From Devosia insulae DS-56 (GTDB taxonomy: Bacteria > Pseudomonadota > Alphaproteobacteria > Rhizobiales > Devosiaceae), in contig NZ_LAJE02000244.1 of NCBI RefSeq assembly GCF_000970465.2, positions 1 through 43,072 of the forward strand: a stretch of 43,072 bases of DNA, written 5' to 3'. The position numbers and the translations under genes were made by a program. Numbering within the stretch: the stretch's first letter is position 1; every line of letters starts with the position of its first letter. The notes below the pieces were generated by a model, which made no database searches, was not told the origin of the DNA, and worked only from the letters and a program-made list of their open reading frames with translations. This document shows positions 128 through 9,813 of the stretch, one piece after another.

Positions 128-1045
128 TCAGCACCCCATCGAGGGCAGCCAGTATTTCTTGCCGGTCAAGGCGCGCTTTTTGTCCATGCGGTCGAGCAGG
201 GCGCAGCCCTTCAGCGCCACGTCGATCGCTTTGGCGTGGCCGGCGCCGTGGCTGAACTCGGCATTGGTGATGACATTATCCGCCACCGAACATACCGAGC
301 CGCCACGGAAACCGTAGAGCGCCGCCAGCGTCACGACAGCCGCCGACTCGCGATCGCCATTGAGCACGCCGGCGCGGTTGTAGGTCGCCAGCATTTCGAT
401 GTTCCAGGGTTGCAGGTAGCCGCCGACGCCGGGCCGGCCGACGCCGGCGAAGTCGCTGTCGACCGACAGGGTGATGCCGACGTGATAGTCGGCACTGAGC
501 TCATCGGCAGCCTGCGCCATCGCCGCCACCACCTCGTAATGGCTGGTCGCCGGGAAGGCGCGATCGATATAGGCGCGGGTCATGCCTTCTTCGCGCACCA
601 CGCCCGATGACACCACGATGTCGCCGGGCTTGACGTCGGTGCCGATGCCACCCGAACCGCCGACGCGCAGATAGGTGTGGGCCTTGGAGAACTCCATGAA
701 ATCGTAGAGCAGCAGTTCGGCCTCGGACGAGCCGCTGCCGCCCGAGACGACGGTGATCCTCGCACCCTCGTAGGTGCCTGAGATCGAGGTGAACATCCCG
801 GATTCGCCGATCAGCTCGGCTCCCTCGAGATACTGCCCGATATGCGCGGTCGGATCGCCGGCATAGGCGATCAGCGGATCGCGCACCGTCACCAGTACGA
901 AGTCGCCAACTTTGTCGGGGTCGATGCGCGTCATCGCCGGGCGGCCTTCGACCATCAGGCCGCGATGCGGCACGTTGTTCCAGTAGGCGTAGCGCTCATG
1001 GATCTGCTGTAGGGCGGCGCGGCGCGCCACCTCGTCGCGGGACAT
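128..1045 (-). CDS. Nucleoside phosphorylase (uridine phosphorylase-like, PNP/UDP family)
   Basis: 305 aa, probably cytoplasmic. The family cleaves nucleosides with phosphate to give base and (deoxy)ribose-1-phosphate. Visible PNP/UDP hallmarks are the phosphate-binding segment around VSGGSGSSEAELLLYDF (about residues 100-116), the glycine-rich RVGGSGGIG core (about 127-135), and a C-terminal segment near GDRESAAVVTLAALYGFRGG, which corresponds to the sugar-binding Glu region. It is the last visible gene of the minus-strand operon, 36 bp after the ADP-ribosylglycohydrolase gene, so it probably acts on a product of the pathway. Several residues around the sugar site depart from E. coli Udp, so the substrate is unknown. 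AMP nucleosidase-like activity is an alternative. Fold confidence is high, substrate confidence low. Confidence 0.85.
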   Translation of the reverse strand: MSRDEVARRAALQQIHERYAYWNNVPHRGLMVEGRPAMTRIDPDKVGDFVLVTVRDPLIAYAGDPTAHIGQYLEGAELIGESGMFTSISGTYEGARITVVSGGSGSSEAELLLYDFMEFSKAHTYLRVGGSGGIGTDVKPGDIVVSSGVVREEGMTRAYIDRAFPATSHYEVVAAMAQAADELSADYHVGITLSVDSDFAGVGRPGVGGYLQPWNIEMLATYNRAGVLNGDRESAAVVTLAALYGFRGGSVCSVADNVITNAEFSHGAGHAKAIDVALKGCALLDRMDKKRALTGKKYWLPSMGC

Positions 1046-1081
1046 GGATAACTCCTCAAAACCGGGACGGGATGCCCGCTG

Positions 1082-3142
1082 CTAGTGGACCGCGTGGACC
1101 AGAAAACCATCGGCCACGATGGTGCCCTTCTCTACGATGAAGCCGGCGCCGCCGCTGGTAAAGGTGGCGTCGGTGGCCTCGCCGGCTGCGCGGCCGTCGA
1201 CCACGAGGCTCAGCCGATCGCCGGCCACGGTCAGCTTGAGGTCGCGCTTGCCTTCGGCGCCGACCTCCACCGGAACGCGCGACAGCACCGCAACCTCATC
1301 GTCATAACGCCTTATGATCAACGCTTCGCGACCGCGTAGCATGCCGGCATAGTAGCGGCGATGTCCACGGGCCCGGGCGACGAGGCCCGCGCCATCATTG
1401 ATCGAGTAGTCGAGGGAACTGGCGACCGAATAATTGTCCCAGTCGCGGCTGCCGGTGGTGGCGACGCCGTTCTCATAGGGGTGCGAGAAGCAGAGCGTGT
1501 ACTTGAAATCCGGCGCGAAGTGCTTGGCCGAGCTCACCCAGGCGCGGGTCCAGAACGGGGTGAGGTTCCAGATCGATTTGACCAGCATGCCCCTCGTCTC
1601 ATAGGCGACCGGGGCGCCCGACCAGTCGACGGATTGCACCGTCACCGCGCCGTCGAAGCGCCCGTCCGAGCCAAACTCGATCCCCAGCCGGTAGAGCGGC
1701 AATCCGTTGGTATCGGGCACCAGCCAGGCGAGGTCGCCGGCGTCCGACCACGGGCCCTCGAGGCGCTGCACGGCATCGTCGCGGTCGTAGATCAGGGCGT
1801 AGAGGCGCGCCTTGACGCCGGCGGGACGGTCGAGCATCGCCGTCACCGTCTGCCCCGGATAGAGTGTCGGGCTCGCCACCATGGCGAAGCTCGACTGCGC
1901 CGCGAAGGGCTCGACGAAAACCGGCGTCGAGACCGATCCGGTGACGCCGAGCGACAGGCCGCTGAGCTCGACCGACAGTCCCGACCCGGCATTGCCGAGC
2001 CGCAGCGCTCCCTGCCGGCCGACATGACGCGGGCAGAGTGCGAAGCCCTGGGTGGCGCCCGGGTAATCGAAGCCGTATTTCGGACGGGCCGCCGGGGCCG
2101 GCTCGTCGTTGAGCGCATTGGCTGCGGCGACGATCGTGCGGGTCTGCTGCACCGCGTCGGTGATACCGGCGGCGCCATCGGCGGTGACCACATACATGAA
2201 GTCGCTGACCGGGCCGCGCAGGTCCGGGCCGCGGTCGAGGGCTGCCAGCCCGAGGCGGATGCCGTTGAGGCAACCGACATTGCCGGCATTGCAATCGGTG
2301 TCCCAGCCGGCGGTGGTAGCAATCTTCAGCGACCGGCCGAAATCGTCGCCCGCCATCAGCAGGGCCATCAGCACGATGGCATGGTTGGGGACCATGTGGC
2401 AGGGGCCATCATAGTGGTCGTAGCCATGGTTGCCGGCGATCCAGGCGCGCACCCGATGCCAGTCGTCGGTTTTGGCGCACTGGTTGCGCAACTGGTCGAC
2501 GACGCTCAGCAGCTGGTTGTTGCCGACATATTTGAGGCCCCGGTCGAGCAGCTTGTCGACGCTCGGCTCCGAGAACGCCATCGCTTCCATGGTGCCGAGC
2601 AGTACGGCCGCATCGAGGGCGATGCCGTCATGGCTGACCGAGGCCGCGGCGCGCACCATCTGTGCCGCCCGATCCGGATCGTTCGGGTTGGCCATGGCGA
2701 AGCCATCCATGAAGATCTGGGCGCCGATCTGCGCCGGAATCCAGGGGCCATTGAGCTGATGCGAGCCGGTGAGCGGCGCTTTGATGCCGTTCTTCAGGTG
2801 GAGGAACGCGGTGTGCTCGGTCGAGCGCCCCAGGCCGCCCCACCACAGGATAGTCTTTTCCTCGATGATGTAGTTGAGCCAGGTCTTGCCGACGGTGTGC
2901 GGATCGAGCCGCTTGGGGTAGCCGTTATCCTCGAGCGCCCGGAAGAACGCGAAGGTGCCCGAGATGTCGTCGTCGGGCAGCATGATCGGCAGGTTCATCT
3001 TGCCATTGACGAAGTAATCCACCTCGCCATGCGTCTCCATGATCCGCTCGTACGACCAGCCCTCGACCGGCCGGCCGTGATAGACGCCGAGGATCTTGCC
3101 CAGGACGCCGGCGTAGATCTTTTCTTCGGTTGCGCGATCCAT
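1082..3142 (-). CDS. ADP-ribosylglycohydrolase-family protein with C-terminal beta-sandwich domains
   Basis: 686 aa, about twice the length of a plain ADP-ribosylglycohydrolase (ARH/DraG). Residues 1-345 carry the ARH fold: GVLGKILGVYHGRPVEGW near the N-terminus, LPDDDISGTF (about 55-64) where ARHs have the metal-binding TDDT motif, and GWDTDCNAGNVG (about 279-290) matching the C-terminal GGDTDT metal site. Residues about 345-686 look all-beta, ending in a LamG/keto-disaccharide-hydrolase-like stretch (RARGHRRYYAGMLRG ... SLVVDGRAAG) that may bind a sugar. There is no signal peptide, so it should be cytoplasmic. Inferred role: hydrolysis of an N- or O-glycosidic bond of a small ribosyl or sugar conjugate rather than of ADP-ribosyl-protein. 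It starts 3 bp after the nucleoside hydrolase gene, which implies co-translation. Confidence 0.82.
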   Translation of the reverse strand: MDRATEEKIYAGVLGKILGVYHGRPVEGWSYERIMETHGEVDYFVNGKMNLPIMLPDDDISGTFAFFRALEDNGYPKRLDPHTVGKTWLNYIIEEKTILWWGGLGRSTEHTAFLHLKNGIKAPLTGSHQLNGPWIPAQIGAQIFMDGFAMANPNDPDRAAQMVRAAASVSHDGIALDAAVLLGTMEAMAFSEPSVDKLLDRGLKYVGNNQLLSVVDQLRNQCAKTDDWHRVRAWIAGNHGYDHYDGPCHMVPNHAIVLMALLMAGDDFGRSLKIATTAGWDTDCNAGNVGCLNGIRLGLAALDRGPDLRGPVSDFMYVVTADGAAGITDAVQQTRTIVAAANALNDEPAPAARPKYGFDYPGATQGFALCPRHVGRQGALRLGNAGSGLSVELSGLSLGVTGSVSTPVFVEPFAAQSSFAMVASPTLYPGQTVTAMLDRPAGVKARLYALIYDRDDAVQRLEGPWSDAGDLAWLVPDTNGLPLYRLGIEFGSDGRFDGAVTVQSVDWSGAPVAYETRGMLVKSIWNLTPFWTRAWVSSAKHFAPDFKYTLCFSHPYENGVATTGSRDWDNYSVASSLDYSINDGAGLVARARGHRRYYAGMLRGREALIIRRYDDEVAVLSRVPVEVGAEGKRDLKLTVAGDRLSLVVDGRAAGEATDATFTSGGAGFIVEKGTIVADGFLVHAVH

Positions 3143-3145
3143 CGG

Positions 3146-4093
3146 TTACTCCAGCACCAGCGTCATCACCAGATCGAGGAAGCGCCGGTAGTCGGCGCTC
3201 GAAGCGACCTCGATTTCCGGCAAATGGGCCCAGCCGTGGTGGTGGCGGAAATCAGCCACGGTCTGCCCCAGCGTCAGCTCGCCCTTGGTCTCGACCCCGA
3301 CCCGCGCCGTGGTGGTGCCGATCAGGCTCGGATCGATCACCGCCGCGACGGCCATCGAGTCGATCAGCACGCAATAGGACTCGAACCCCCTGCCCTCGAC
3401 GAACCGCACCATCTTCTCGACGATATTGGCTTCCGGCCGGGCGGAGGCTTTCAGCGTCGCCAGCTGCTCAGCGGTGAAGTTGATGTCGAAATGGGTCGCG
3501 ACATCGAGGCCGACCGCCCGCAGCCTGACACCGGACTCGAACACGAGCCGCGCCGCCTCGGGATCGACGAAGACGTTCCACTCGCTCTGCGGGGTATCCC
3601 CGGTGGCGTTGGCGAAGGCGTATTTGTTGAGGCCGAAGGAGCCGGCAATTGAGACGACCTCCCTGACCAGCGGGACGATGTCCGGCTCCTTCATGAAGGC
3701 CATGGCGAGGTTGGTGAGAGGCCCCAGCGTAATCACCGTCACCTCGCCCGGGTTAGCGCGAACCAGGTCGATGATCTGATCGACGCCGTGTTTGCCGCTC
3801 GGCGTAGTCGTCGGCTCCGGTAAGTGGGTTTCGGCCTGGCCATCGGAGCCGTGCGAGAACGGATCCTTGGCGAGTGGGCGCGCCAGAGGCTTGCCCATGC
3901 CACGCGCCACCGGAATGTCAGTGCGCCCGATCAGTTCCAGGGTCTTCAGCGCGTTCTTGGTCGTCACCTCGATCGGGTAGTTGCCGGCGACGGAGGAAAT
4001 GCCGAGCAGCTCGACCGCCTTCGACTTCGCCGCGAGGATGATCGCGAGGGTGTCATCCATCCCGGGGTCGGTGTCGATCAGGATCTTCTTCAT
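3146..4093 (-). CDS. Inosine-uridine preferring nucleoside hydrolase family protein
   Basis: 315 aa, usual length for the IUNH family, which hydrolyses N-ribosides with a Ca2+-bound water. The N-terminal calcium signature DTDPGMDD (residues 7-14) is intact, as are ITLGPLTNLA (about 121-130), EWNVFVDPEAA (about 171-181) and the metal-ligand Asp245 in LIDSMAVA. The residue before that Asp is Ile244, where group I hydrolases such as the Crithidia enzyme have the His that protonates the leaving base; the HD pair reads ID here. This suggests a different leaving group or another acid. The start overlaps the stop of the PfkB gene by 4 bp (ATGA), so the two are translationally coupled. Family assignment is strong, substrate unknown. 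Confidence 0.9.
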   Translation of the reverse strand: MKKILIDTDPGMDDTLAIILAAKSKAVELLGISSVAGNYPIEVTTKNALKTLELIGRTDIPVARGMGKPLARPLAKDPFSHGSDGQAETHLPEPTTTPSGKHGVDQIIDLVRANPGEVTVITLGPLTNLAMAFMKEPDIVPLVREVVSIAGSFGLNKYAFANATGDTPQSEWNVFVDPEAARLVFESGVRLRAVGLDVATHFDINFTAEQLATLKASARPEANIVEKMVRFVEGRGFESYCVLIDSMAVAAVIDPSLIGTTTARVGVETKGELTLGQTVADFRHHHGWAHLPEIEVASSADYRRFLDLVMTLVLE

Positions 4094-5013
4094 GTGGTCT
4101 GCTCCAGCATAGTCATAAGTTCAGCGACGAGGGCGGCGGCGGCCGTGCGCGTCGTGGCGGCGCCCGCTTCGGGCGGCCCGTATTGCGAAATGGCGAGGCG
4201 AGCTGCGACGGTGCCCATGGCACCGGCCCGTTCGGGGCTTAGCCCCTGCGCCAGCCCCACCAGAGCCGCGCCGCCATAGGCGTTGCCGCCGCCGGTGACA
4301 TCGGTCGGCGCAACCGGCAGGCTGGGCACGAAGCGCACCGCGCCCCTGGTGATGACAAAGCTGCCGCGGGCCCCGGCCCTGAGAAACACCGTGCCAGTGC
4401 CGATGGCGCGAAGCCGGGCGATCAGCGTCGCCTCGTCGGCCGCGCCATAGATCAGCGCCGTCTCCTCGAGATTGATCGACAGCGCATCGACCTGCCGGGC
4501 CAGCTCCTCGATGCGCGCGCGGTTCTCCGGCAGGCAGGCATCGAGCGCGATCTCCCACAGGGTCAGCGGGCGGTGTGCGGCAAGCAGCGGCAGGGTTTCG
4601 GCCCAGAACGCGGGATCGAGATTGCGGAAGATGAAGAGGCTGCGAGCGCCCGTGATCACCCTCGCGATGTCAGCGGCCGTCGGCTCGATCTTGCGGAAAT
4701 GCTCGGCGCCATAGACCGGCGCCTCGGTGCGGGTGCGCTCGTCGAGGTAGCGCATGATGTTGCGCGGCGCGTGATCATCGGCGAAGCGCAGCCCGCGTGT
4801 GGTCATGCCGTTCCGATCGAGCCACGGGCCGAAGGTCTGCGGCAGATCGCGGCCGGTGCCGGTGACGAGCACGGCGAAATCGCTGAACAAAGCCGCCCCG
4901 GCGAGCGCGTAAAGCCCCGCGCCGCCCGGAATATCGTCACGCCGGCTGCCGTCGGCGTAGACGATATTGTCCATCAGCACCGCGCCAACGATGATGTCGG
5001 CGCCGTCAGCCAT
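4090..5013 (-). CDS. PfkB-family carbohydrate kinase-like protein (MAK32-like active-site variant)
   Basis: 307 aa, typical length for ribokinase-like PfkB enzymes that phosphorylate sugars or nucleosides. An N-terminal glycine pair (GGAGLYAL, 30-37) and the C-terminal signature TDVTGGGNAYGGAALVGL (237-254) are visible. The signature is normally DTTGAGD, whose Asp is the catalytic base; here it is Asn244 in GGGN. As I recall, the yeast MAK32 branch has the same GGGN form, so this may be a subfamily rather than a dead enzyme. The start overlaps the YjbQ gene by 8 bp and the stop overlaps the nucleoside hydrolase start by 4 bp. Context suggests phosphorylation, or only binding, of a sugar released from the imported compound. 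Activity is uncertain. Confidence 0.85.
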   Translation of the reverse strand: MADGADIIVGAVLMDNIVYADGSRRDDIPGGAGLYALAGAALFSDFAVLVTGTGRDLPQTFGPWLDRNGMTTRGLRFADDHAPRNIMRYLDERTRTEAPVYGAEHFRKIEPTAADIARVITGARSLFIFRNLDPAFWAETLPLLAAHRPLTLWEIALDACLPENRARIEELARQVDALSINLEETALIYGAADEATLIARLRAIGTGTVFLRAGARGSFVITRGAVRFVPSLPVAPTDVTGGGNAYGGAALVGLAQGLSPERAGAMGTVAARLAISQYGPPEAGAATTRTAAAALVAELMTMLEQTT

Positions 5014-5410
5014 GGCACTTCACGAAGAACTGGCGCTGGCGCGGCCCGTCGAACTCGTTGAAGAAAATGCCCTGCGAGTGGCCGAGCAGCGGCGCCCCGT
5101 CGACGATGATCAGCGTCAGGCTGACCCCGACAAGCACCGATTTCACATGCCCGGCCGCATCCTGCGGCGTGTCGAACTGGTGCTTGAAGTCGATGCGCGT
5201 CGGCACCAGCCGGTTGATATCGTCATGCACATCCTCGAGGCCCTTGGGGTCCCAGAACGAGCTGATCGACAGGCCGGCCGTGGTATGCGGCACAAAGACG
5301 ACGCAGAGCCCTTCGGTGACGCCGGAGGCCGCGACCGCCTCGCGCACGGTTTTGGTGATCTCGTAGGCTTGGTTCGCCGTGGTTGCGAGCTTGTGGTTGG
5401 AAAGGCTCAT
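5006..5410 (-). CDS. YjbQ family protein (UPF0047)
   Basis: 134 aa if translation starts at MSLSNHKL; an upstream in-frame ATG would add 20 residues that do not resemble the family. The chosen ATG overlaps the stop of the SIS gene by 4 bp (ATGA). Family marks: VFVPHTTAGLSIS (YjbQ proteins have HTSAGL), DAAGHVKSVLVG with the conserved His, and GAPLLGHSQGIFFNEFDGPR where the family has LGTWQGIYF. E. coli YjbQ can show weak thiamine-phosphate synthase activity and the family is annotated on that basis, but the physiological role is unsettled. Being locked between a sugar isomerase-like gene and a kinase suggests a role in the same catabolic pathway. Cytoplasmic. Confidence 0.88.
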   Translation of the reverse strand: MSLSNHKLATTANQAYEITKTVREAVAASGVTEGLCVVFVPHTTAGLSISSFWDPKGLEDVHDDINRLVPTRIDFKHQFDTPQDAAGHVKSVLVGVSLTLIIVDGAPLLGHSQGIFFNEFDGPRQRQFFVKCHG

Positions 5411-6567
5411 TTGCCCGGCTCCCAGATGGCGCTCTGCTGCACGGTGGCGGCCGTCAGGCTGTCGTCCCACGGTGGGTTGCCGCCGCGGCCATACGCGGCC
5501 CCATCGAGGGCACTGAGATGGGCTGCGAGCAGTGCCGGGGCGGCACTGGTGAGGAGCGGCGACCAGCGTTCATCGATCGCCGGGATCGGCAGCACGGCAT
5601 GACCGAGCTTGTGCGCTAGATCGGCCGCGGCCCCGCCACCGACCACCACCAGGCTGCGGCCGAGCTTGTGCATATAGGCCAGCAGTTCGACCGCCCGGCT
5701 CTCTGTGACGCTGCCCGCGGGCACCACCAGCACCGTCGCAATCTCGGCCGGCGCGTTATCGAAATAGTTGAGGTGGGTCCATTCCTCGAGGTCTCGCGCC
5801 AGCGCATGGCGGCCGGAGGCCTCGAGCAGCTTGGCGGCGCCATACTCGGCCACCGCGTAGTTGGGCCCAGCGCCGACGAACTCGACCAGCCTCCGGCCGG
5901 CCAGCGCGGTCGCGACCTGCTGCGTCGGCGTGTCGAGATCGGCGACCACGCGCTCGAGCGTCGCCAGCAGCGACTTCAGTTGCCCGCGCAAGGCCTGCGC
6001 CTCGTCCATGGTCATCGCCAGCTTCACTTCGCCAAAGCGGATGGCGAGCAGCTGCAGGCCGAGCACCGCAAACAGATAGGGCCCGAACCCAGGCGCGTTG
6101 GGCAGTTCGGGCACCGGCAGGAGCAGCTTCCGATCGGCAATGCCGGCCAGCCGACCGGTGTCGTTGCGGGTAACCGCCAGGACCTTGGCGCCGGTGGCCC
6201 GCCACAGCGTCGCGGCTTCGGCAACCCGGGCGGCGCCGCCGGAATTGGAGAGCGCCACCAGGAGGCTCTGTTCCAGCTCGCGCCGCGGATAGAGCTGCGA
6301 TTGATAGCGGCCGGTTTCGAGCGGCGAACGGATTTCCGCGGCGACCTCTGCGTCGATCCAGAACGACAGCTCGGCGGCCTTGGCGGCAAACCACGAATCG
6401 CCGCTGCCGGTGAGCACGACGCGCCGGGTACGGTAGATATCGGGGGTTTCGACGGCGAGCCGGGCGTTCAGCTCCAGCGCGTCGAAGCCCTTGAGCAGCG
6501 CGCCGGGCGTGGCAAAGACCTGCTCACGCATCGGGTTGGACAGTTCCACAACAGACCTCTTGATCAT
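5407..6567 (-). CDS. SIS-domain sugar isomerase/deglycase-like protein (GlmS-isomerase/FrlB type)
   Basis: 386 aa from ATG 6565-6567, preceded by GGGAG. The longer reading frame to 6657 adds a proline/arginine-rich stretch that looks non-coding. Two SIS repeats are seen: the first with VVLTGSGDSWFAA (about 51-62), the second with RLVEFVGAGPNYAVAEYGAAKLLE (second half). This double-SIS layout is that of the isomerase half of GlmS, AgaS and the fructoselysine-6-phosphate deglycase FrlB; no glutaminase domain is present, so it is not GlmS. With a PfkB-type kinase close by, a kinase-then-deglycase sequence like FrlD/FrlB is a reasonable hypothesis. The Shine-Dalgarno GGGAG lies in one arm of an 8-bp hairpin (6572-6594), so translation may be structure-controlled. 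Confidence 0.83.
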   Translation of the reverse strand: MIKRSVVELSNPMREQVFATPGALLKGFDALELNARLAVETPDIYRTRRVVLTGSGDSWFAAKAAELSFWIDAEVAAEIRSPLETGRYQSQLYPRRELEQSLLVALSNSGGAARVAEAATLWRATGAKVLAVTRNDTGRLAGIADRKLLLPVPELPNAPGFGPYLFAVLGLQLLAIRFGEVKLAMTMDEAQALRGQLKSLLATLERVVADLDTPTQQVATALAGRRLVEFVGAGPNYAVAEYGAAKLLEASGRHALARDLEEWTHLNYFDNAPAEIATVLVVPAGSVTESRAVELLAYMHKLGRSLVVVGGGAAADLAHKLGHAVLPIPAIDERWSPLLTSAAPALLAAHLSALDGAAYGRGGNPPWDDSLTAATVQQSAIWEPGK

Positions 6568-6571
6568 GGGG

Positions 6572-6719
6572 CTCCCGGCGCCGCGGGCCGGGAGGGGGAC
6601 GCGGACGACCGGGGGAGGTTGGTCGTCCGCGTCGGAGCCAAGCCGGGAGCGTTTCAACGAAACGCTCTTTCTTCTGGTCGCGCTTTCGAACCGGAAAAGT
6701 CTGCAACTTTTCCTGAAAA
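6572..6719 (-). other. Array of four hairpins between the binding-protein and SIS genes
   Basis: Read by eye, four inverted repeats are packed into about 150 bp. (1) CTCCCGGC/GCCGGGAG at 6572-6594, loop 7. (2) GACGCGGACGACC/GGTCGTCCGCGTC at 6598-6633, a perfect 13-bp arm with a 10-nt loop. (3) GAGCGTTTC/GAAACGCTC at 6647-6667, a perfect 9-bp arm with a 3-nt loop. (4) GGAAAAGT/ACTTTTCC at 6693-6713 inside the dispersed repeat. On the minus-strand transcript they follow the binding-protein stop codon and precede the SIS start. Such structures commonly protect the upstream messenger end or attenuate read-through, giving much binding protein and little enzyme. Hairpin 3 could alternatively be an operator. 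Confidence 0.75.
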
Positions 6720-6723
6720 CGCT
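6677..6723 (-). repeat. Dispersed palindromic repeat, copy 1
   Basis: 47-nt element with core CGCTTTC-gaacc-GGAAAAGT-ctgca-ACTTTTCC-t-GAAAACG. It differs at only three positions from the copy at 22207-22253. The stem GGAAAAGT/ACTTTTCC is perfect here; the outer arm has one mismatch. It sits directly beside the stop codon (6724-6726) of the solute-binding protein gene, in the same relation as copy 2 to the lysozyme gene. Likely a mobile palindrome serving as 3' end or terminator. Confidence 0.8.
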
Positions 6724-8040
6724 TCAGAGCGACGGCTTGGGGAGTTCCTGCACCAGGCCCTGCGCCTTCTCGTCGGCGTAGGTGGTCGCGGCCTTCTTGA
6801 GCATGTCGGCGGCGCTCATCTTGTCGAGCCAGACGCTCTCGATGTCCTCGAACATCACCTGGCTGGTGGCCGGCGGGAAGAAGGTGCCGATCTTGAAGCC
6901 GAAGGTGCCCTTGTCGACGGCCGTGGTCATGGCGGCCATGGCCTCGAGGAAGGACTTGGTGAGCCCGGTGGCGGCGGGATCGGACGGGAACTGCTTGAGC
7001 GGAATGCCCCAGTAGCCCGGCCAGACCTTGGCCATTTCGGCCGCGAACTCGGCCGAGAAGATGCGGTCGAGCACCAGGGCGGCGCCGTCCTTCACCTTGG
7101 AGTTGGCGTTGATCGACAGGGTGAACGCCACGCCCATATCGTAGATCGGATAGGGCTGGCTGGCATCGAGCTGCGGCACCGGCGCAAAGGCGAAATCACC
7201 CGCCGTGGCATCCTTGAAGTAATTGGTGGCCCACTGGAAGCCGATCGAAGGGGCAAAGAAGAAGGGCGACTTCTTCTGGCTCACCAGCGAGATCGACTCG
7301 TCGAAGTTGAGCGAGAAATAGTCCTTGCCGCCGAGATAGCCCGCCTTGAACCAGCGCGCCGATTCCTCGATCGCCTTCTGCATCTCGGGCGAGTCCCAGC
7401 CTTTGCCGGTTGACAGGATGTCGTAGAACTTGGTCGGCCCGACGATGTTGTTGATGAAGATCGAGGCGTAGTTCTCGTTGACCGGCTGCCAGCCCTTGTT
7501 GCCGGTGACCGAGGCGTAGAGCCCTTCTGCCTGGGCGGCCTTCATGACCGTCTCGACTTCCTCGAGCGTCTTGGGAACGGCCCAGCCTTTTTCCTCGAGC
7601 AGCGCCTTGTTGTAGAACATGCCGTCCGAGATCAGCGAAGGCGGCATGCAGTAGAGGTGGCCGAGCTGCTGGCAGGTATCGAGCACGGGGTTGAGCAGCT
7701 TGTCGTTCCAGCCGAATTTTTCCGCATAGCCCTCGAGCGGCTCGAGCACGCCGGCCTTGGCAAGCGGCGCGATGTAGGACGGCCCCGAGGTGTAGACCAG
7801 GTCCGGTCCCTCGCCGGCCAGCACCGAGACGCGGACGTTGTTATCGACGTCGTTGTTGTAGTCCATCTGCAGTTCGTACTGATCCTGCGAGGCATTGAAG
7901 GGCTCGACCAGCACCTTCTGAAACGCTTCCTGCAGGTTGGGCGGCGCGCCCCAGAACCAAAGCGTGACCGGCTCCCTGGCCAGGGCATTGGACGATACAG
8001 CGATCAGAACAGACGCTGCGGCGACGGCGACTTTCCACAT
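6724..8040 (-). CDS. ABC transporter extracellular solute-binding protein, family 1
   Basis: 438 aa, normal length for family 1 (CUT1) sugar-binding proteins. A Sec signal peptide is clear: MWKVAVAAASVLIAVSSNALA, with cleavage after Ala21 before REPVTLWFWG. The mature N-terminus, VSVLAGEGPDLVYTSG and the Trp/Tyr-rich ligand-facing segments fit the family. It is the first gene of the minus-strand operon, directly behind the LacI-type promoter at 8117-8146. No permease or ATPase lies in the visible operon; these may be beyond the left edge or elsewhere. The ligand is unknown. Because the following genes encode nucleoside- and glycoside-cleaving enzymes, a nucleoside-like or N-glycosyl compound is inferred. 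The gene is separated from the enzymes by a hairpin array. Confidence 0.92.
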   Translation of the reverse strand: MWKVAVAAASVLIAVSSNALAREPVTLWFWGAPPNLQEAFQKVLVEPFNASQDQYELQMDYNNDVDNNVRVSVLAGEGPDLVYTSGPSYIAPLAKAGVLEPLEGYAEKFGWNDKLLNPVLDTCQQLGHLYCMPPSLISDGMFYNKALLEEKGWAVPKTLEEVETVMKAAQAEGLYASVTGNKGWQPVNENYASIFINNIVGPTKFYDILSTGKGWDSPEMQKAIEESARWFKAGYLGGKDYFSLNFDESISLVSQKKSPFFFAPSIGFQWATNYFKDATAGDFAFAPVPQLDASQPYPIYDMGVAFTLSINANSKVKDGAALVLDRIFSAEFAAEMAKVWPGYWGIPLKQFPSDPAATGLTKSFLEAMAAMTTAVDKGTFGFKIGTFFPPATSQVMFEDIESVWLDKMSAADMLKKAATTYADEKAQGLVQELPKPSL

Positions 8041-8116: not shown

Positions 8117-8146
8117 ACTCTAGTTAAACGTTTCATGTATCGTCAA
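8117..8146 (-). promoter_or_regulatory. Sigma-70-like promoter with LacI-type operator
   Basis: On the minus strand TTGACG (8146-8141) and TAGAGT (8122-8117) are 18 bp apart, a plausible -35/-10 pair for the binding-protein operon starting at 8040. The palindrome AAACGTTT (8126-8133, extended TTAAACGTTTCA) lies between them. A CG-centred AAACGTTT core is typical of LacI-family operators; binding there would block polymerase. The divergent gene at 8193 could share this control. The matching repressor is not obvious in the window. Confidence 0.6.
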
Positions 8147-8192: not shown

Positions 8193-9062
8193 GTGGGAAA
8201 GCTCGTCGTCCAGCAGTCGTGGATCAACGATTCCGAGTTCATCGGCTATTTCGTTGCCGCCGCCGAAGGGTTCTACCAGGCTGTGGGGCTGGAGGTGCTG
8301 CACCGCCCCGGACATGCCGGCCTGACACCCGAGCACACGTTGCTTGAGGGCACTGCCGATATCGCGCTCTGCGCGCCGGAATCGGTGGCCGCGACGATCC
8401 GCGACACCGGCGCCAGGCTCGCTGTCATCGGGGCGCAGTTCCAGAAGAGCCCGCTCGGCATCGTCAGCCGGGCCGACGATCCCATCCGCAATCTCGGCGA
8501 ACTCAGGGGCCGCACGCTTTCAGTGCCGGACATGAACCGGGCGATGGTGCTGGAGCTGCTGGCCTATGCCGGGCTCGCAATTGAGGCGGTTGAGATCGTC
8601 CCTTACGCGCACGACCCGCGGCCGCTGATCGAGCGGCGGATCGCCGGGCTGGTCGATTTCATCGTCGATCCGCAATACCGGCTCAGCCTCGCCGGGGTCG
8701 ACCCCTATGCGATGCTGCTGTTCGACCATGGCGCACCGCTGCCGAACAATCTCGCCGTGGTGACGGAGGCGACCCTGCTGGCGCGCCGCCGGGAGCTGGT
8801 CGACTGGCTGCTCGCCTCGCGGCAAGGCTGGCAGGAAAATTACCATGACCCTGCCTTCTACCCGGCGCGGCTGCGCGGCGACCCGCTGGTCGAGAGCCGG
8901 ACGCTGGCGCACGAGATCTATGCCAATGGCGCGTTTCAACCGCTGGTCGAGACGCCGGATGGCATCATGTCGATGAGCGACGGGCTGATCGACGGTGTCG
9001 TGGCGTATCTGGAACGGGTCCACCTGCCGGTAGAGCGCGGCCTGTTCACGCCGCTGATCTGA
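8193..9062 (+). CDS. NMT1/THI5-like ABC substrate-binding domain protein without signal peptide
   Basis: 289 aa from a GTG start with a strong GGAGGGG ribosome-binding site 4 nt upstream. The reading frame is closed by a TAG at 8121-8123 and offers no earlier ATG. The fold is that of NMT1/THI5 (SsuA/ThiY-like) proteins: EFIGYFVAAAEGFYQAVGLEV at the start, GTADIALCAPESVAATIRD, ADDPIRNLGELRGRTLSVPD and a C-terminal ANGAFQPLV...DGLIDGVVAYL. Family members normally carry a signal peptide and bind pyrimidine precursors, taurine or nitrate analogues. This one begins directly in the mature domain, so it may be cytoplasmic. It is divergent from the nucleoside-type operon and shares its 150-bp control region, suggesting a linked function. 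The ligand is unknown. Confidence 0.8.
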   Translation: MGKLVVQQSWINDSEFIGYFVAAAEGFYQAVGLEVLHRPGHAGLTPEHTLLEGTADIALCAPESVAATIRDTGARLAVIGAQFQKSPLGIVSRADDPIRNLGELRGRTLSVPDMNRAMVLELLAYAGLAIEAVEIVPYAHDPRPLIERRIAGLVDFIVDPQYRLSLAGVDPYAMLLFDHGAPLPNNLAVVTEATLLARRRELVDWLLASRQGWQENYHDPAFYPARLRGDPLVESRTLAHEIYANGAFQPLVETPDGIMSMSDGLIDGVVAYLERVHLPVERGLFTPLI

Positions 9063-9106: not shown

Positions 9107-9496
9107 CTAGAACAGAATGGTTCGCGGATCGTAGGCCGCAAGGGCTTCATCGTGTGTGACGAGCTGCAAGCCCTCGACCTGGGCTTGGGCGAGCAACAGG
9201 CGGTCGAAGGGATCAGCGTGGAAGGCCGCGATCGTTTCGACGGCTTTGGCGTGTCTGGAGGTTACCGCTATCTCGCGAAGGCCGCTTCGCGCCGCCAGCT
9301 CCACGATGGCGTCCGACGCGGTAGTCGGCGCACTGCGCCGTCCCGACGCGCGCTTGGACGCGATCTCGAAGATGCTGATCGCCGAGAAGTGGACATCGTT
9401 ATGCGCGTCTTCGATCGTGCGCCGCAGTGGGGCCGGAAGCAGCCTCGTCGCAGTCATTGCCCACACCAGCGTATGCGTGTCGAGCAGCAGCCTCAC
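9107..9496 (-). CDS. PIN-domain toxin (VapC-like RNase) of a type II toxin-antitoxin pair
   Basis: 129 aa. PIN-domain ribonucleases cut RNA using clustered acidic residues: Asp6 in LLLDTHTLVWA, Glu44 in ISIFEIASK, Asp95/Asp98 in HADPFDRLLLAQA and Asp116 in LVTHDEAL are all present, so the toxin looks intact. It belongs to the PIN group usually paired with Phd/YefM antitoxins. The start overlaps the antitoxin stop by 4 bp, the usual antitoxin-first coupled arrangement. The substrate RNA is unknown. Confidence 0.93.
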   Translation of the reverse strand: MRLLLDTHTLVWAMTATRLLPAPLRRTIEDAHNDVHFSAISIFEIASKRASGRRSAPTTASDAIVELAARSGLREIAVTSRHAKAVETIAAFHADPFDRLLLAQAQVEGLQLVTHDEALAAYDPRTILF

Positions 9497-9813
9497 GCGG
9501 ACTTATTCCGCTTCCTGCCGTACTTCTCTTCAAGCTCACGCGAATGCCGCTCGAACCGTTCCCAGCGTGCGTCAAGAACATCCTTCCAGATCACCTCGTC
9601 AAGGGCTTGCCACTCCCTGAACCACTCCTCGTCAAGCGTCCCGAACTCACCCTCCGCGATGCCCAACCGCCGCTCGGGCTGCTCGATCGGCACGATCCGA
9701 GCAACCGGCTTGCCGTTGCGCGCCAGGATGATCTCCGTTTCCCTGCCACTCTCCACGGCATCAACCAACTTGGAGAGATTGGTCTTGGCTTCGAGCATGT
9801 TGACTTTGGGCAT
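9493..9813 (-). CDS. Phd/YefM-family antitoxin
   Basis: 106 aa. The N-terminal half is a standard Phd/YefM DNA-binding fold (VNMLEAKTNLSKLVDAVESGRETEIILARNGKPVARIVP). It should bind the operator at 9820-9844 and repress its own operon, while the C-terminal part neutralises the PIN toxin. The C-terminal tail (about residues 55-106) is longer than the roughly 80-residue antitoxins usual for this pair. It is rich in charged and aromatic residues (EEWFREWQALDEVIWKD, then a basic end), indicating a diverged toxin-binding tail. First gene of the two-gene operon. Confidence 0.88.
   Translation of the reverse strand: MPKVNMLEAKTNLSKLVDAVESGRETEIILARNGKPVARIVPIEQPERRLGIAEGEFGTLDEEWFREWQALDEVIWKDVLDARWERFERHSRELEEKYGRKRNKSA

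What the first reader, a model, noticed from the sequence alone, without database searches (positions are those of the whole stretch)
128..8040. Seven-gene coupled operon for uptake and dismantling of an unknown N-glycosidic or nucleoside-like compound
Seen: a minus-strand operon of sugar-type binding protein, double-SIS protein, YjbQ protein, PfkB-like kinase, nucleoside hydrolase, ARH fused to beta-sandwich domains, and a nucleoside phosphorylase, with 3-bp gaps or 4-8-bp overlaps at most joints. Known: nucleoside hydrolase, phosphorylase and ARH all break N- or O-ribosyl bonds; PfkB plus double-SIS is the kinase/deglycase pair of fructoselysine (FrlD/FrlB) catabolism. Inference: the cell imports a glycosylamine, Amadori-type or ADP-ribose-derived nucleoside and splits it in several steps. 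I do not know a described pathway with this set.
Basis: partly seen in the sequence, partly recalled or inferred. Interest (0 to 1): 0.8.

Follow-up and report, generated by a model that had tools for sequence, protein, structure and literature searches.

The report
Two-operon island importing unknown riboside
Some soil bacteria carry a self-contained set of twelve genes, sharing one control sequence, that probably takes up an unidentified sugar-linked compound resembling a nucleoside and breaks it down with several enzymes whose usual active-site residues have changed.

Summary
The seven genes are real, in order and coupled. They are part of a larger unit: in relatives a convergent five-gene operon (two permeases, second ARH, MalK/UgpC-type ATPase, LacI) lies just downstream. 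In the window's own assembly it ends contig C175, whose end faces the window's left edge on a relative's chromosome. Both promoters carry one operator, TKAAACGTTTMA; it occurs at exactly two places, these promoters, in 5 of 8 genomes searched; a relaxed form adds a sixth. So this is one 12-gene LacI-type regulon with its own CUT1 importer, read in four genera. A core quartet (PfkB, SIS, YjbQ, PNP-like) with CUT1 permeases also exists without ARH or nucleoside hydrolase. The 'phosphorylase', 'kinase' and hydrolase each lack a canonical active-site residue, so an ordinary nucleoside is unlikely. The fructoselysine analogy is weak: no BLAST similarity to FrlB, and the kinase has GGGN for GAGD. 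Best reading: uptake and stepwise dismantling of a furanosyl, probably ribosyl, glycoside with an unusual aglycone. Substrate unknown; ten searches of an open-access library showed no such pathway.

The parts
128..1045 (-). PNP/uridine-phosphorylase superfamily protein (305 aa) with changed phosphate and base site (VRDP and DRES signature)
   Evidence: PF01048; aligned to E. coli Udp
1082..3142 (-). ARH-A: ADP-ribosylglycohydrolase domain plus C-terminal CBM66-like beta-sandwich (686 aa)
   Evidence: PF03747; profile match to levanase domain 4b1m/4azz; DDD and GWDTDCNAGN motifs invariant in 19 aligned sequences
3146..4093 (-). nucleoside-hydrolase family protein (315 aa), DTDPGMDD kept, acid His replaced by Ile
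   Evidence: PF01156; alignment to RihA/RihC
4090..5013 (-). PfkB-family protein (307 aa) with GGGN in place of GAGD
   Evidence: PF00294; alignments
5006..5410 (-). YjbQ/UPF0047 protein (134 aa)
   Evidence: TIGR00149 above cut-off (tested on the longer ORF 5006-5470); start corrected
5407..6567 (-). double-SIS protein (386 aa), GlmS-isomerase-like
   Evidence: PF01380, TIGR01135 below cut-off over both SIS domains; start corrected
6724..8040 (-). CUT1-type solute-binding protein with an N-terminal signal-like stretch (by eye)
   Evidence: PF01547; PDB relatives are mostly named sugar-binding proteins
8124..8135 (.). LacI-type operator TTAAACGTTTCA, shared with the promoter of the permease operon on contig C175 (16975-16986)
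8117..8146 (-). promoter-like TTGACG (8141-8146) and TAGAGT (8117-8122), 18 bp apart, straddling the operator; read by eye
   Evidence: sequence printed

Best explanation
The window holds one half of a 12-gene catabolic island under one local LacI-family repressor. Operon A encodes the binding protein SBP and the enzymes SIS, YjbQ, PfkB, NH, ARH-A and PNP-like. Convergent operon B encodes permease 1, permease 2, ARH-B, the MalK/UgpC-type ATPase and LacI. The repressor would sit on the same palindrome in both promoters until the imported compound or a product lifts it (inferred). SBP and operon B's permeases and ATPase import a small furanosidic glycoside. Inside, ARH-A and ARH-B remove furanosyl (most likely ribosyl) residues; NH and the PNP-like enzyme break the sugar-aglycone N-glycosidic bond; PfkB, SIS and YjbQ process the sugar part or a sugar-aglycone intermediate. 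Shown: gene content, order, conservation, shared operators, importer. Inferred: co-regulation, direction of flux, furanosyl/ribosyl substrate, order of steps. The changed active sites suggest that the aglycone is not an ordinary nucleobase.
For: All 12 genes read in G000 (two contigs), G010 (Devosia sp. 66-14), G014, G423, G401 (Pleomorphomonas carboxyditropha) and G309: four genera. Operator: 2 places in each of 5 of 8 genomes, reversed-pattern control 0 in all 8; relaxed pattern 2 places in G309 too. Core quartet plus CUT1 permeases without ARH/NH labels in G324 and G119; all families again, some broken, in R. leguminosarum Gr 12/7. SIS relatives at E <= 1e-47: 6 of 397 order genomes (own included), all 6 beside PfkB, YjbQ and PNP-like. 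ARH beside a ribokinase-like gene (Deinococcus), a Bmp nucleoside importer, and PNP-like + PfkB. Changed residues. CBM66-like domain.
Against: CUT1 importers usually carry sugars, not nucleosides (recalled), and the binding protein's PDB relatives are mostly sugar binders. The CBM66-like domain points to fructosides as much as to ribosides. In several loci ARHs of about 40% identity stand with importer and LacI alone, so the ARH need not act on a nucleoside. No substrate, product or expression data. The island is rare: 4 of 397 order genomes (own included) at >= 58% SIS identity, own only among 385 class genomes at E <= 1e-30.
Confidence: 0.55

Rival explanations
1. Ordinary nucleoside/ribose salvage island, like the Bacteroides ribose-utilisation locus (ARH + nucleoside hydrolase + ribokinases, recalled) on an ABC importer: common nucleosides and ADP-ribose-derived ribosides are split to ribose and base.
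For: NH keeps the DTDPGxDD motif; the PNP-like enzyme keeps Arg91, Arg168 and Glu198 of Udp; ARH sits beside a ribokinase-like gene in Deinococcus.
Against: The NH has lost the His taken as general acid for common bases, the PNP-like protein has lost Arg30 and Gln166 (and Arg48 in five of six copies), and the PfkB is far below the cut-off of the ribokinase models (40 against 300 bits for TIGR02152). SIS and YjbQ are not needed for that route.
Confidence: 0.2
2. Amadori-type catabolism: PfkB phosphorylates a ketosamine, SIS is the deglycase (FrlD/FrlB-like).
For: PfkB and SIS stand together in the islands, the minimal cores and more distant loci, and SIS keeps the Glu-x-x-His of GlmS/FrlB. Distant PfkB-SIS pairs sit with BtpA-family proteins; the one tested matches phosphoribosylanthranilate isomerase weakly (E 8e-4, below cut-off).
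Against: No BLASTP similarity of the window SIS to FrlB at E up to 10 (best for two relatives E 0.9 and 1.0); catalytic Asp of the kinase replaced in all 7 quartet copies aligned and in the Rhizobium copy.
Confidence: 0.12
3. Uptake of a fructofuranosyl or other furanosyl oligosaccharide; ARHs are its glycosidases and NH/PNP homologues are recruited as accessory sugar enzymes.
For: CUT1 importer, LacI, CBM66-like domain; several ARH loci have importer, LacI and one ARH only.
Against: Does not explain two N-ribosyl-bond enzyme families, nor PNP-like + PfkB + ARH recurring with a PotABCD-like importer and a TRZ/deaminase-type amidohydrolase.
Confidence: 0.1
4. Salvage of a vitamin-like pyrimidine (thiamine or HMP derivative) carried on a sugar.
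For: YjbQ is named secondary thiamine-phosphate synthase in NCBIfam; a THI5/NMT1-like gene is divergent from operon A in the window and G423; 5-FTHF cyclo-ligase-like genes lie near the quartet in G324 and G119 and, by resemblance, in Rhizobium.
Against: No such THI5-like gene was seen beside the island in G401 or G309 (gene listing; not every neighbour was scanned); YjbQ is listed as of unknown function (PMC7954711, passages).
Confidence: 0.06

Closest known systems
E. coli yegTUV (nucleoside:H+ symporter, ARH, PfkB; repressor GgaR/YegW)
   Same: Transporter + ARH + PfkB under a local repressor; function of the enzymes also unknown (PMC10819704, abstract and passages).
   Different: MFS not ABC transporter, ARH gene of about 334 codons, canonical GAGD kinase, no NH, PNP, SIS or YjbQ in the operon.
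Bacteroides thetaiotaomicron ribose-utilisation system (recalled; paper not held)
   Same: ARH, nucleoside hydrolase and PfkB kinases in one uptake locus (recalled).
   Different: SusCD-type uptake, two ribokinases, no SIS/YjbQ/PNP (from memory, not tested).
Fructoselysine (FrlABCD) pathway, E. coli
   Same: PfkB plus SIS-type sugar-phosphate enzyme.
   Different: Window SIS unrelated to FrlB by BLASTP; PfkB lacks catalytic Asp; no counterpart of frlA or frlC among the 12 genes.
PNP-like/PfkB/ARH/creatininase operon with PotABCD-like importer in Hyphomicrobiales
   Same: Same PNP-like subfamily (VRDP found in 6 of 8 copies, DRES/DREA in 7 of 8), PfkB and often ARH in one uptake operon.
   Different: Different importer, canonical GAGD kinase, short ARH, extra amidohydrolase and creatininase; no SIS, YjbQ or NH labelled in the stretches read.
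PfkB-SIS-BtpA operons with Bmp-type ABC importer (Mesorhizobium huakuii pMHb and others)
   Same: PfkB next to SIS in a nucleoside-type importer operon.
   Different: BtpA family protein instead of YjbQ and PNP-like; canonical GAGD in the six kinases aligned; SIS 27-35% identical.

Membership tests
CUT1 ABC importer | SBP_bac_1 binding protein, two BPD_transp_1 permeases, ATPase with MalK-type TOBE/OB domains | tested here: met
   (permeases and ATPase tested in L003; own copies 92-99% identical)
LacI-family local regulon | LacI gene in the unit and the same palindrome in both promoters, absent elsewhere in the genome | tested here: met
   with the relaxed pattern G423 has two further sites; repressor binding itself not testable here
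ADP-ribosylglycohydrolase (PF03747) | domain above gathering score and metal-binding Asp motifs | tested here: met
   that these motifs bind metal is recalled
ADP-ribosylglycohydrolase (PF03747) | hydrolysis of ADP-ribosyl bonds | not testable with these tools
   needs enzyme assay
Uridine phosphorylase | phosphate site Gly26, Arg30, Arg48, Arg91, Thr94 and uracil site Gln166/Arg168 of E. coli Udp (roles recalled) | tested here: not met
   Arg91 and Arg168 kept; Gly26, Arg30, Thr94, Gln166 changed in 6 of 6 copies aligned, Arg48 in 5 of 6 (kept in L063); N-terminal part of the alignment uncertain; 130.7 bits against cut-off 280.3
Nucleoside hydrolase, RihA/IU type | DTDPGxDD-type motif | tested here: met
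Nucleoside hydrolase, RihA/IU type | His of the late His-Asp pair as leaving-group acid (role recalled) | tested here: not met
   Ile in 4 of 4 island copies aligned, His in RihA and RihC
PfkB sugar kinase | catalytic Asp in GAGD (role recalled) | tested here: not met
   GGGN in 7 of 7 quartet copies aligned (5 islands, 2 minimal cores) and in Rhizobium L085; GAGD in FrlD and YegV
FrlB-type deglycase | sequence similarity to FrlB | tested here: not met
   no BLASTP hit for the window protein at E up to 10; nearest model is GlmS
FrlB-type deglycase | cleavage of a ketosamine 6-phosphate | not testable with these tools
   needs enzyme assay
YjbQ/UPF0047 | TIGR00149 above cut-off | tested here: met
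   109.7 bits against 67.75
Bacteroides ribose-utilisation system | ribokinase and SusCD in the locus (recalled) | not tested
   reference sequences not fetched; paper not held

The most novel reading that the evidence does not exclude
The quartet PfkB(GGGN)-SIS-YjbQ-PNP-like is a new route for breaking a sugar-aglycone N-glycosidic bond in a natural ribosyl compound whose aglycone is not a standard nucleobase. The PfkB protein would not be an ordinary kinase and the PNP-like protein not an ordinary phosphorylase; YjbQ, a widespread family listed as of unknown function, would gain a dedicated catabolic role.
Probability: 0.3. Interest if true: 0.82.

Novelty: new variant of a known kind. Interest (0 to 1): 0.58.

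Why it matters
ARH, YjbQ, PfkB and GlmS-like SIS proteins are common families whose roles in such loci are poorly explained. Here they are tied to one importer, one regulator and one compact regulon, in at least one named isolate (Pleomorphomonas carboxyditropha), so the substrate could be found with one binding protein and one repressor. If the compound is an unusual riboside, it would reveal a soil nutrient and a way of using it that is not yet described, and would help explain the yegTUV operon of E. coli.

Tried and rejected
Chance ORFs: rejected; all seven have Pfam matches above the gathering score, conserved order and dN/dS 0.04-0.36. The window as a random cut through an operon: the window is the whole contig C244 and the rest lies on C175; no exact overlap of the two ends was found, so adjacency rests on relatives.

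FrlB/FrlD membership: rejected on similarity; mechanism not excluded. Ordinary uridine phosphorylase or RihA: rejected as membership. ADP-glucose/glycogen role as proposed for yegTUV (PMC10819704, abstract and passages): not followed, no glycogen gene among the 12.

Led nowhere: genome-contig scan with ARH-A gave 2 relatives from 22 candidate stretches; class search with SIS found only the own genome in 385 at E <= 1e-30; phylum search with the PNP-like protein only the own genome in 398 at E <= 1e-40. Ten literature searches showed no description of this gene set in the titles and abstract beginnings listed; one search listed 20 of 30 papers and 10 of 25, the others all they found.

Results against my reading: ARHs of about 40% identity also occur with importer and LacI alone, without any nucleoside enzyme, and the binding protein looks like a sugar binder. 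The window SIS itself does not match E. coli GlmS pairwise (best E 0.23), although its relatives and the GlmS models do.

Rows dropped: in the SIS order search, 6 of 12 matching genomes (E 4e-25 to 5e-21) have SIS without YjbQ or PNP labels in the stretches read and were not counted as quartets (L071 ends just after SIS). Of the 11 second-type PNP-like rows (43-48% identity) I read 8: PfkB beside 8 of 8 (in L120 and L121 recognised by N-terminal sequence only; Pfam-tested in L117), ARH in 5 of 8 (Pfam-tested in L115, L117, L119; in L120 the frame holds stops), none seen in L114 and L116, L121 cut by the contig end. G427, G238, G325 and G121 are more distant rows (33-35%); of these only G427 was read.

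A second sending lacked fields and was not accepted.
Full report
OBSERVATION. The seven minus-strand genes are present at the stated coordinates with two start corrections: YjbQ 5006-5410 and SIS 5407-6567. All seven have Pfam matches above the gathering score. Four of six joints are a 3-bp gap or 4- to 8-bp overlaps; the others are gaps of 36 and 156 bp.

THE REST OF THE UNIT. The window is the whole contig C244 (43,072 bp) of a 5.75 Mb draft genome in 410 contigs. In Devosia sp. 66-14 (L003) and Pleomorphomonas carboxyditropha (L004) the same seven genes are followed by a convergent operon: permease 1, permease 2, a second ARH of 715-716 aa (ARH-B), a MalK/UgpC-type ATPase and LacI (Pfam of the L003 copies). 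In the window's genome these five genes end contig C175. The end of C175 and the left end of C244 align to G014's chromosome facing each other, with 114 bp between the aligned parts and 109 bp of unaligned contig ends; the ends do not overlap, so adjacency is inferred.

CONSERVATION. Protein identities to the L003 proteins run from 58% (SIS, PfkB) to 99%. dN/dS for the seven genes is 0.04-0.36 in three comparisons. Among 397 order genomes, 12 have an SIS relative at E <= 1e-20; six of them (own included) at E <= 1e-47, and all six have PfkB, YjbQ and PNP-like beside it. A class-wide search gave only the own genome in 385 (E <= 1e-30).

ONE REGULON. The promoter regions of both operons carry the palindrome TGAAACGTTTAA/TTAAACGTTTCA, near TTGAC and a -10-like hexamer (sequences, read by eye). 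The pattern TKAAACGTTTMA occurs at exactly two places in each of G000, G010, G014, G423 and G401, and nowhere in G309, G324 and G119; the reversed control is zero in all eight. The relaxed TNAAACGTTTNA gives two places in G309 as well, and two extra places in G423; its reversed control gives 0-2 per genome. The sites were placed directly before SBP or permease 1 in the window, L003, L004, L016, L061, L063 and L072 and some 50-70 bp before permease 1 in G309 and G423. In the window the site is at 8124-8135; the mean in shuffled windows is 0.00. That the local LacI binds it is inferred.

MINIMAL CORE. In G324 and G119 an operon holds permease, permease, PfkB, SIS, YjbQ and PNP-like, with a binding-protein-like gene upstream (recognised by BLAST in G119, by eye in G324) and no ARH or NH label in the 20 kb read; SIS 38-39%, YjbQ 56-57%, PNP-like 57% identical. 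In Rhizobium leguminosarum Gr 12/7 plasmid pRL1, PNP-like, YjbQ and SIS are divergent from SBP, perm, perm and PfkB, followed by an ARH C-terminal remnant, ATPase, second SBP, a GntR-like ORF and NH pieces, several of these in broken frames. So the quartet looks like the constant core and ARH and NH like additions.

CHANGED ACTIVE SITES. PfkB: GAGD is GGGN in 7 of 7 quartet copies aligned and in the Rhizobium copy, but GAGD in E. coli FrlD and YegV and in the six second-type kinases where the motif was found. PNP-like: of the E. coli Udp residues, Arg91, Arg168 and Glu198 are kept; Gly26, Arg30, Thr94, Gln166 and Met197 are changed in all six copies aligned, Arg48 in five of six (the N-terminal alignment is uncertain). 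NH: metal motif kept, but the His of the late His-Asp pair in known enzymes is Ile in 4 of 4 copies. The functional roles of these residues are recalled. SIS keeps the Glu-x-x-His of GlmS/FrlB and the S-x-S-G loop of GlmS; it matches GlmS models (1e-14, below cut-off), and two relatives match E. coli GlmS pairwise at 9e-12 and 3e-14, while the window protein itself does not (0.23) and FrlB is not matched.

ARH PROTEINS. Nineteen ARHs of about 700 aa align with invariant DDD and GWDTDCNAGN motifs (one row begins late, and several rows are copies of the island itself). Their last 130 or so residues match a levanase domain (E 7.5e-7; that this is the fructan-binding CBM66 is recalled). Their neighbours are usually sugar-type ABC importer genes, often with LacI. 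In Deinococcus aetherius a ribokinase-like gene (290.8 bits, cut-off 299.65) lies between two ARHs. The own genome has a further ARH behind a Bmp-type nucleoside ABC importer. E. coli yegTUV joins a putative nucleoside symporter, ARH and PfkB.

A SECOND OPERON TYPE. Homologues of the PNP-like protein at 43-48% identity (VRDP found in 6 of 8, DRES/DREA in 7 of 8) lie in operons with a PotABCD-like importer, a canonical PfkB, often an ARH of about 350 aa, a creatininase-family protein and a divergent TRZ/deaminase-type amidohydrolase (families tested by HMM mainly in L117). I read 8 of 11 such rows: PfkB beside 8 of 8, ARH in 5 of 8. This independent recurrence of PNP-like, PfkB and ARH is the best argument that the compounds are nucleoside-like.

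MECHANISM. Shown: gene set, importer, shared operators, conservation. Inferred: repression by LacI, import of a small furanosyl glycoside, trimming by ARH-A/ARH-B, cleavage of an N-glycosidic bond by NH and PNP-like, processing by PfkB, SIS and YjbQ. The order of steps and the substrate are unknown. Loss of the leaving-group His in NH and of the base-contact Gln in PNP-like fits an aglycone other than a common nucleobase.

KNOWN OR NEW. Ten literature searches (listed under Tried and rejected) showed no paper describing this set in their listings; the library lacks most subscription papers. For PMC10819704 I saw the abstract and passages; for PMC7954711 passages, where YjbQ is listed as of unknown function; others as search listings. 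The Bacteroides ribose-utilisation paper was not held and is cited from memory. I file this as a new variant of a known kind: a LacI-type, ABC-import catabolic island with an unusual enzyme set.

Noticed in passing
window 8193-9062 (+): THI5/NMT1-like protein without an obvious signal peptide, divergent from operon A; a homologue sits in the same place in G423 (L063 7194-8066), and similar ORFs in L003 and L072; not seen beside the island in G401 or G309.
   Followed up: partly
L114-L121: Second operon type: PotABCD-like importer, PNP-like, canonical PfkB, often ARH, creatininase family, divergent TRZ/8-oxoguanine-deaminase-like amidohydrolase (HMM-tested in L117); unknown pathway, at 43-48% PNP-like identity in several Hyphomicrobiales genera.
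   Followed up: partly
L066, L067, L069, L070, L071, L088: SIS genes, mostly with a PfkB gene beside them, a BtpA-family gene (tested in L066, annotated in L088, by resemblance elsewhere) and mostly a Bmp-type nucleoside ABC importer; in L066 a cyanuric-acid-amidohydrolase (above cut-off) and an amidase are near. Looks like heterocycle-nucleoside catabolism.
   Followed up: partly
L062 13900-19989 (G309): The island in G309 lies near a class-V aminotransferase, an ABC_cobalt-family permease and other ECF-like transporter genes, and a ring-opening amidohydrolase (cyanuric acid type).
   Followed up: partly
L086 (Streptosporangium plasmid): BtpA and SIS genes near FolE, QueE, QueD and a phosphoribosyltransferase, suggesting a 7-deazapurine product cluster.
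   Followed up: no
L017 5785-11252 (own contig C172): Two tandem ARH genes followed by a CoA-transferase family III gene and an HpcH/HpaI-type lyase, behind LacI and ABC importer genes; similar order in L079, L080 and L013.
   Followed up: partly
window 9107-9813 (-): Small two-gene cassette that looks like a PIN-domain toxin with its antitoxin (from sequence appearance only).
   Followed up: no
L085 15793-20770: Rhizobium copy of the system shows an ARH remnant and ATPase, second binding protein and NH genes in broken frames, as if the accessory part were decaying while the quartet ORFs stay open.
   Followed up: partly
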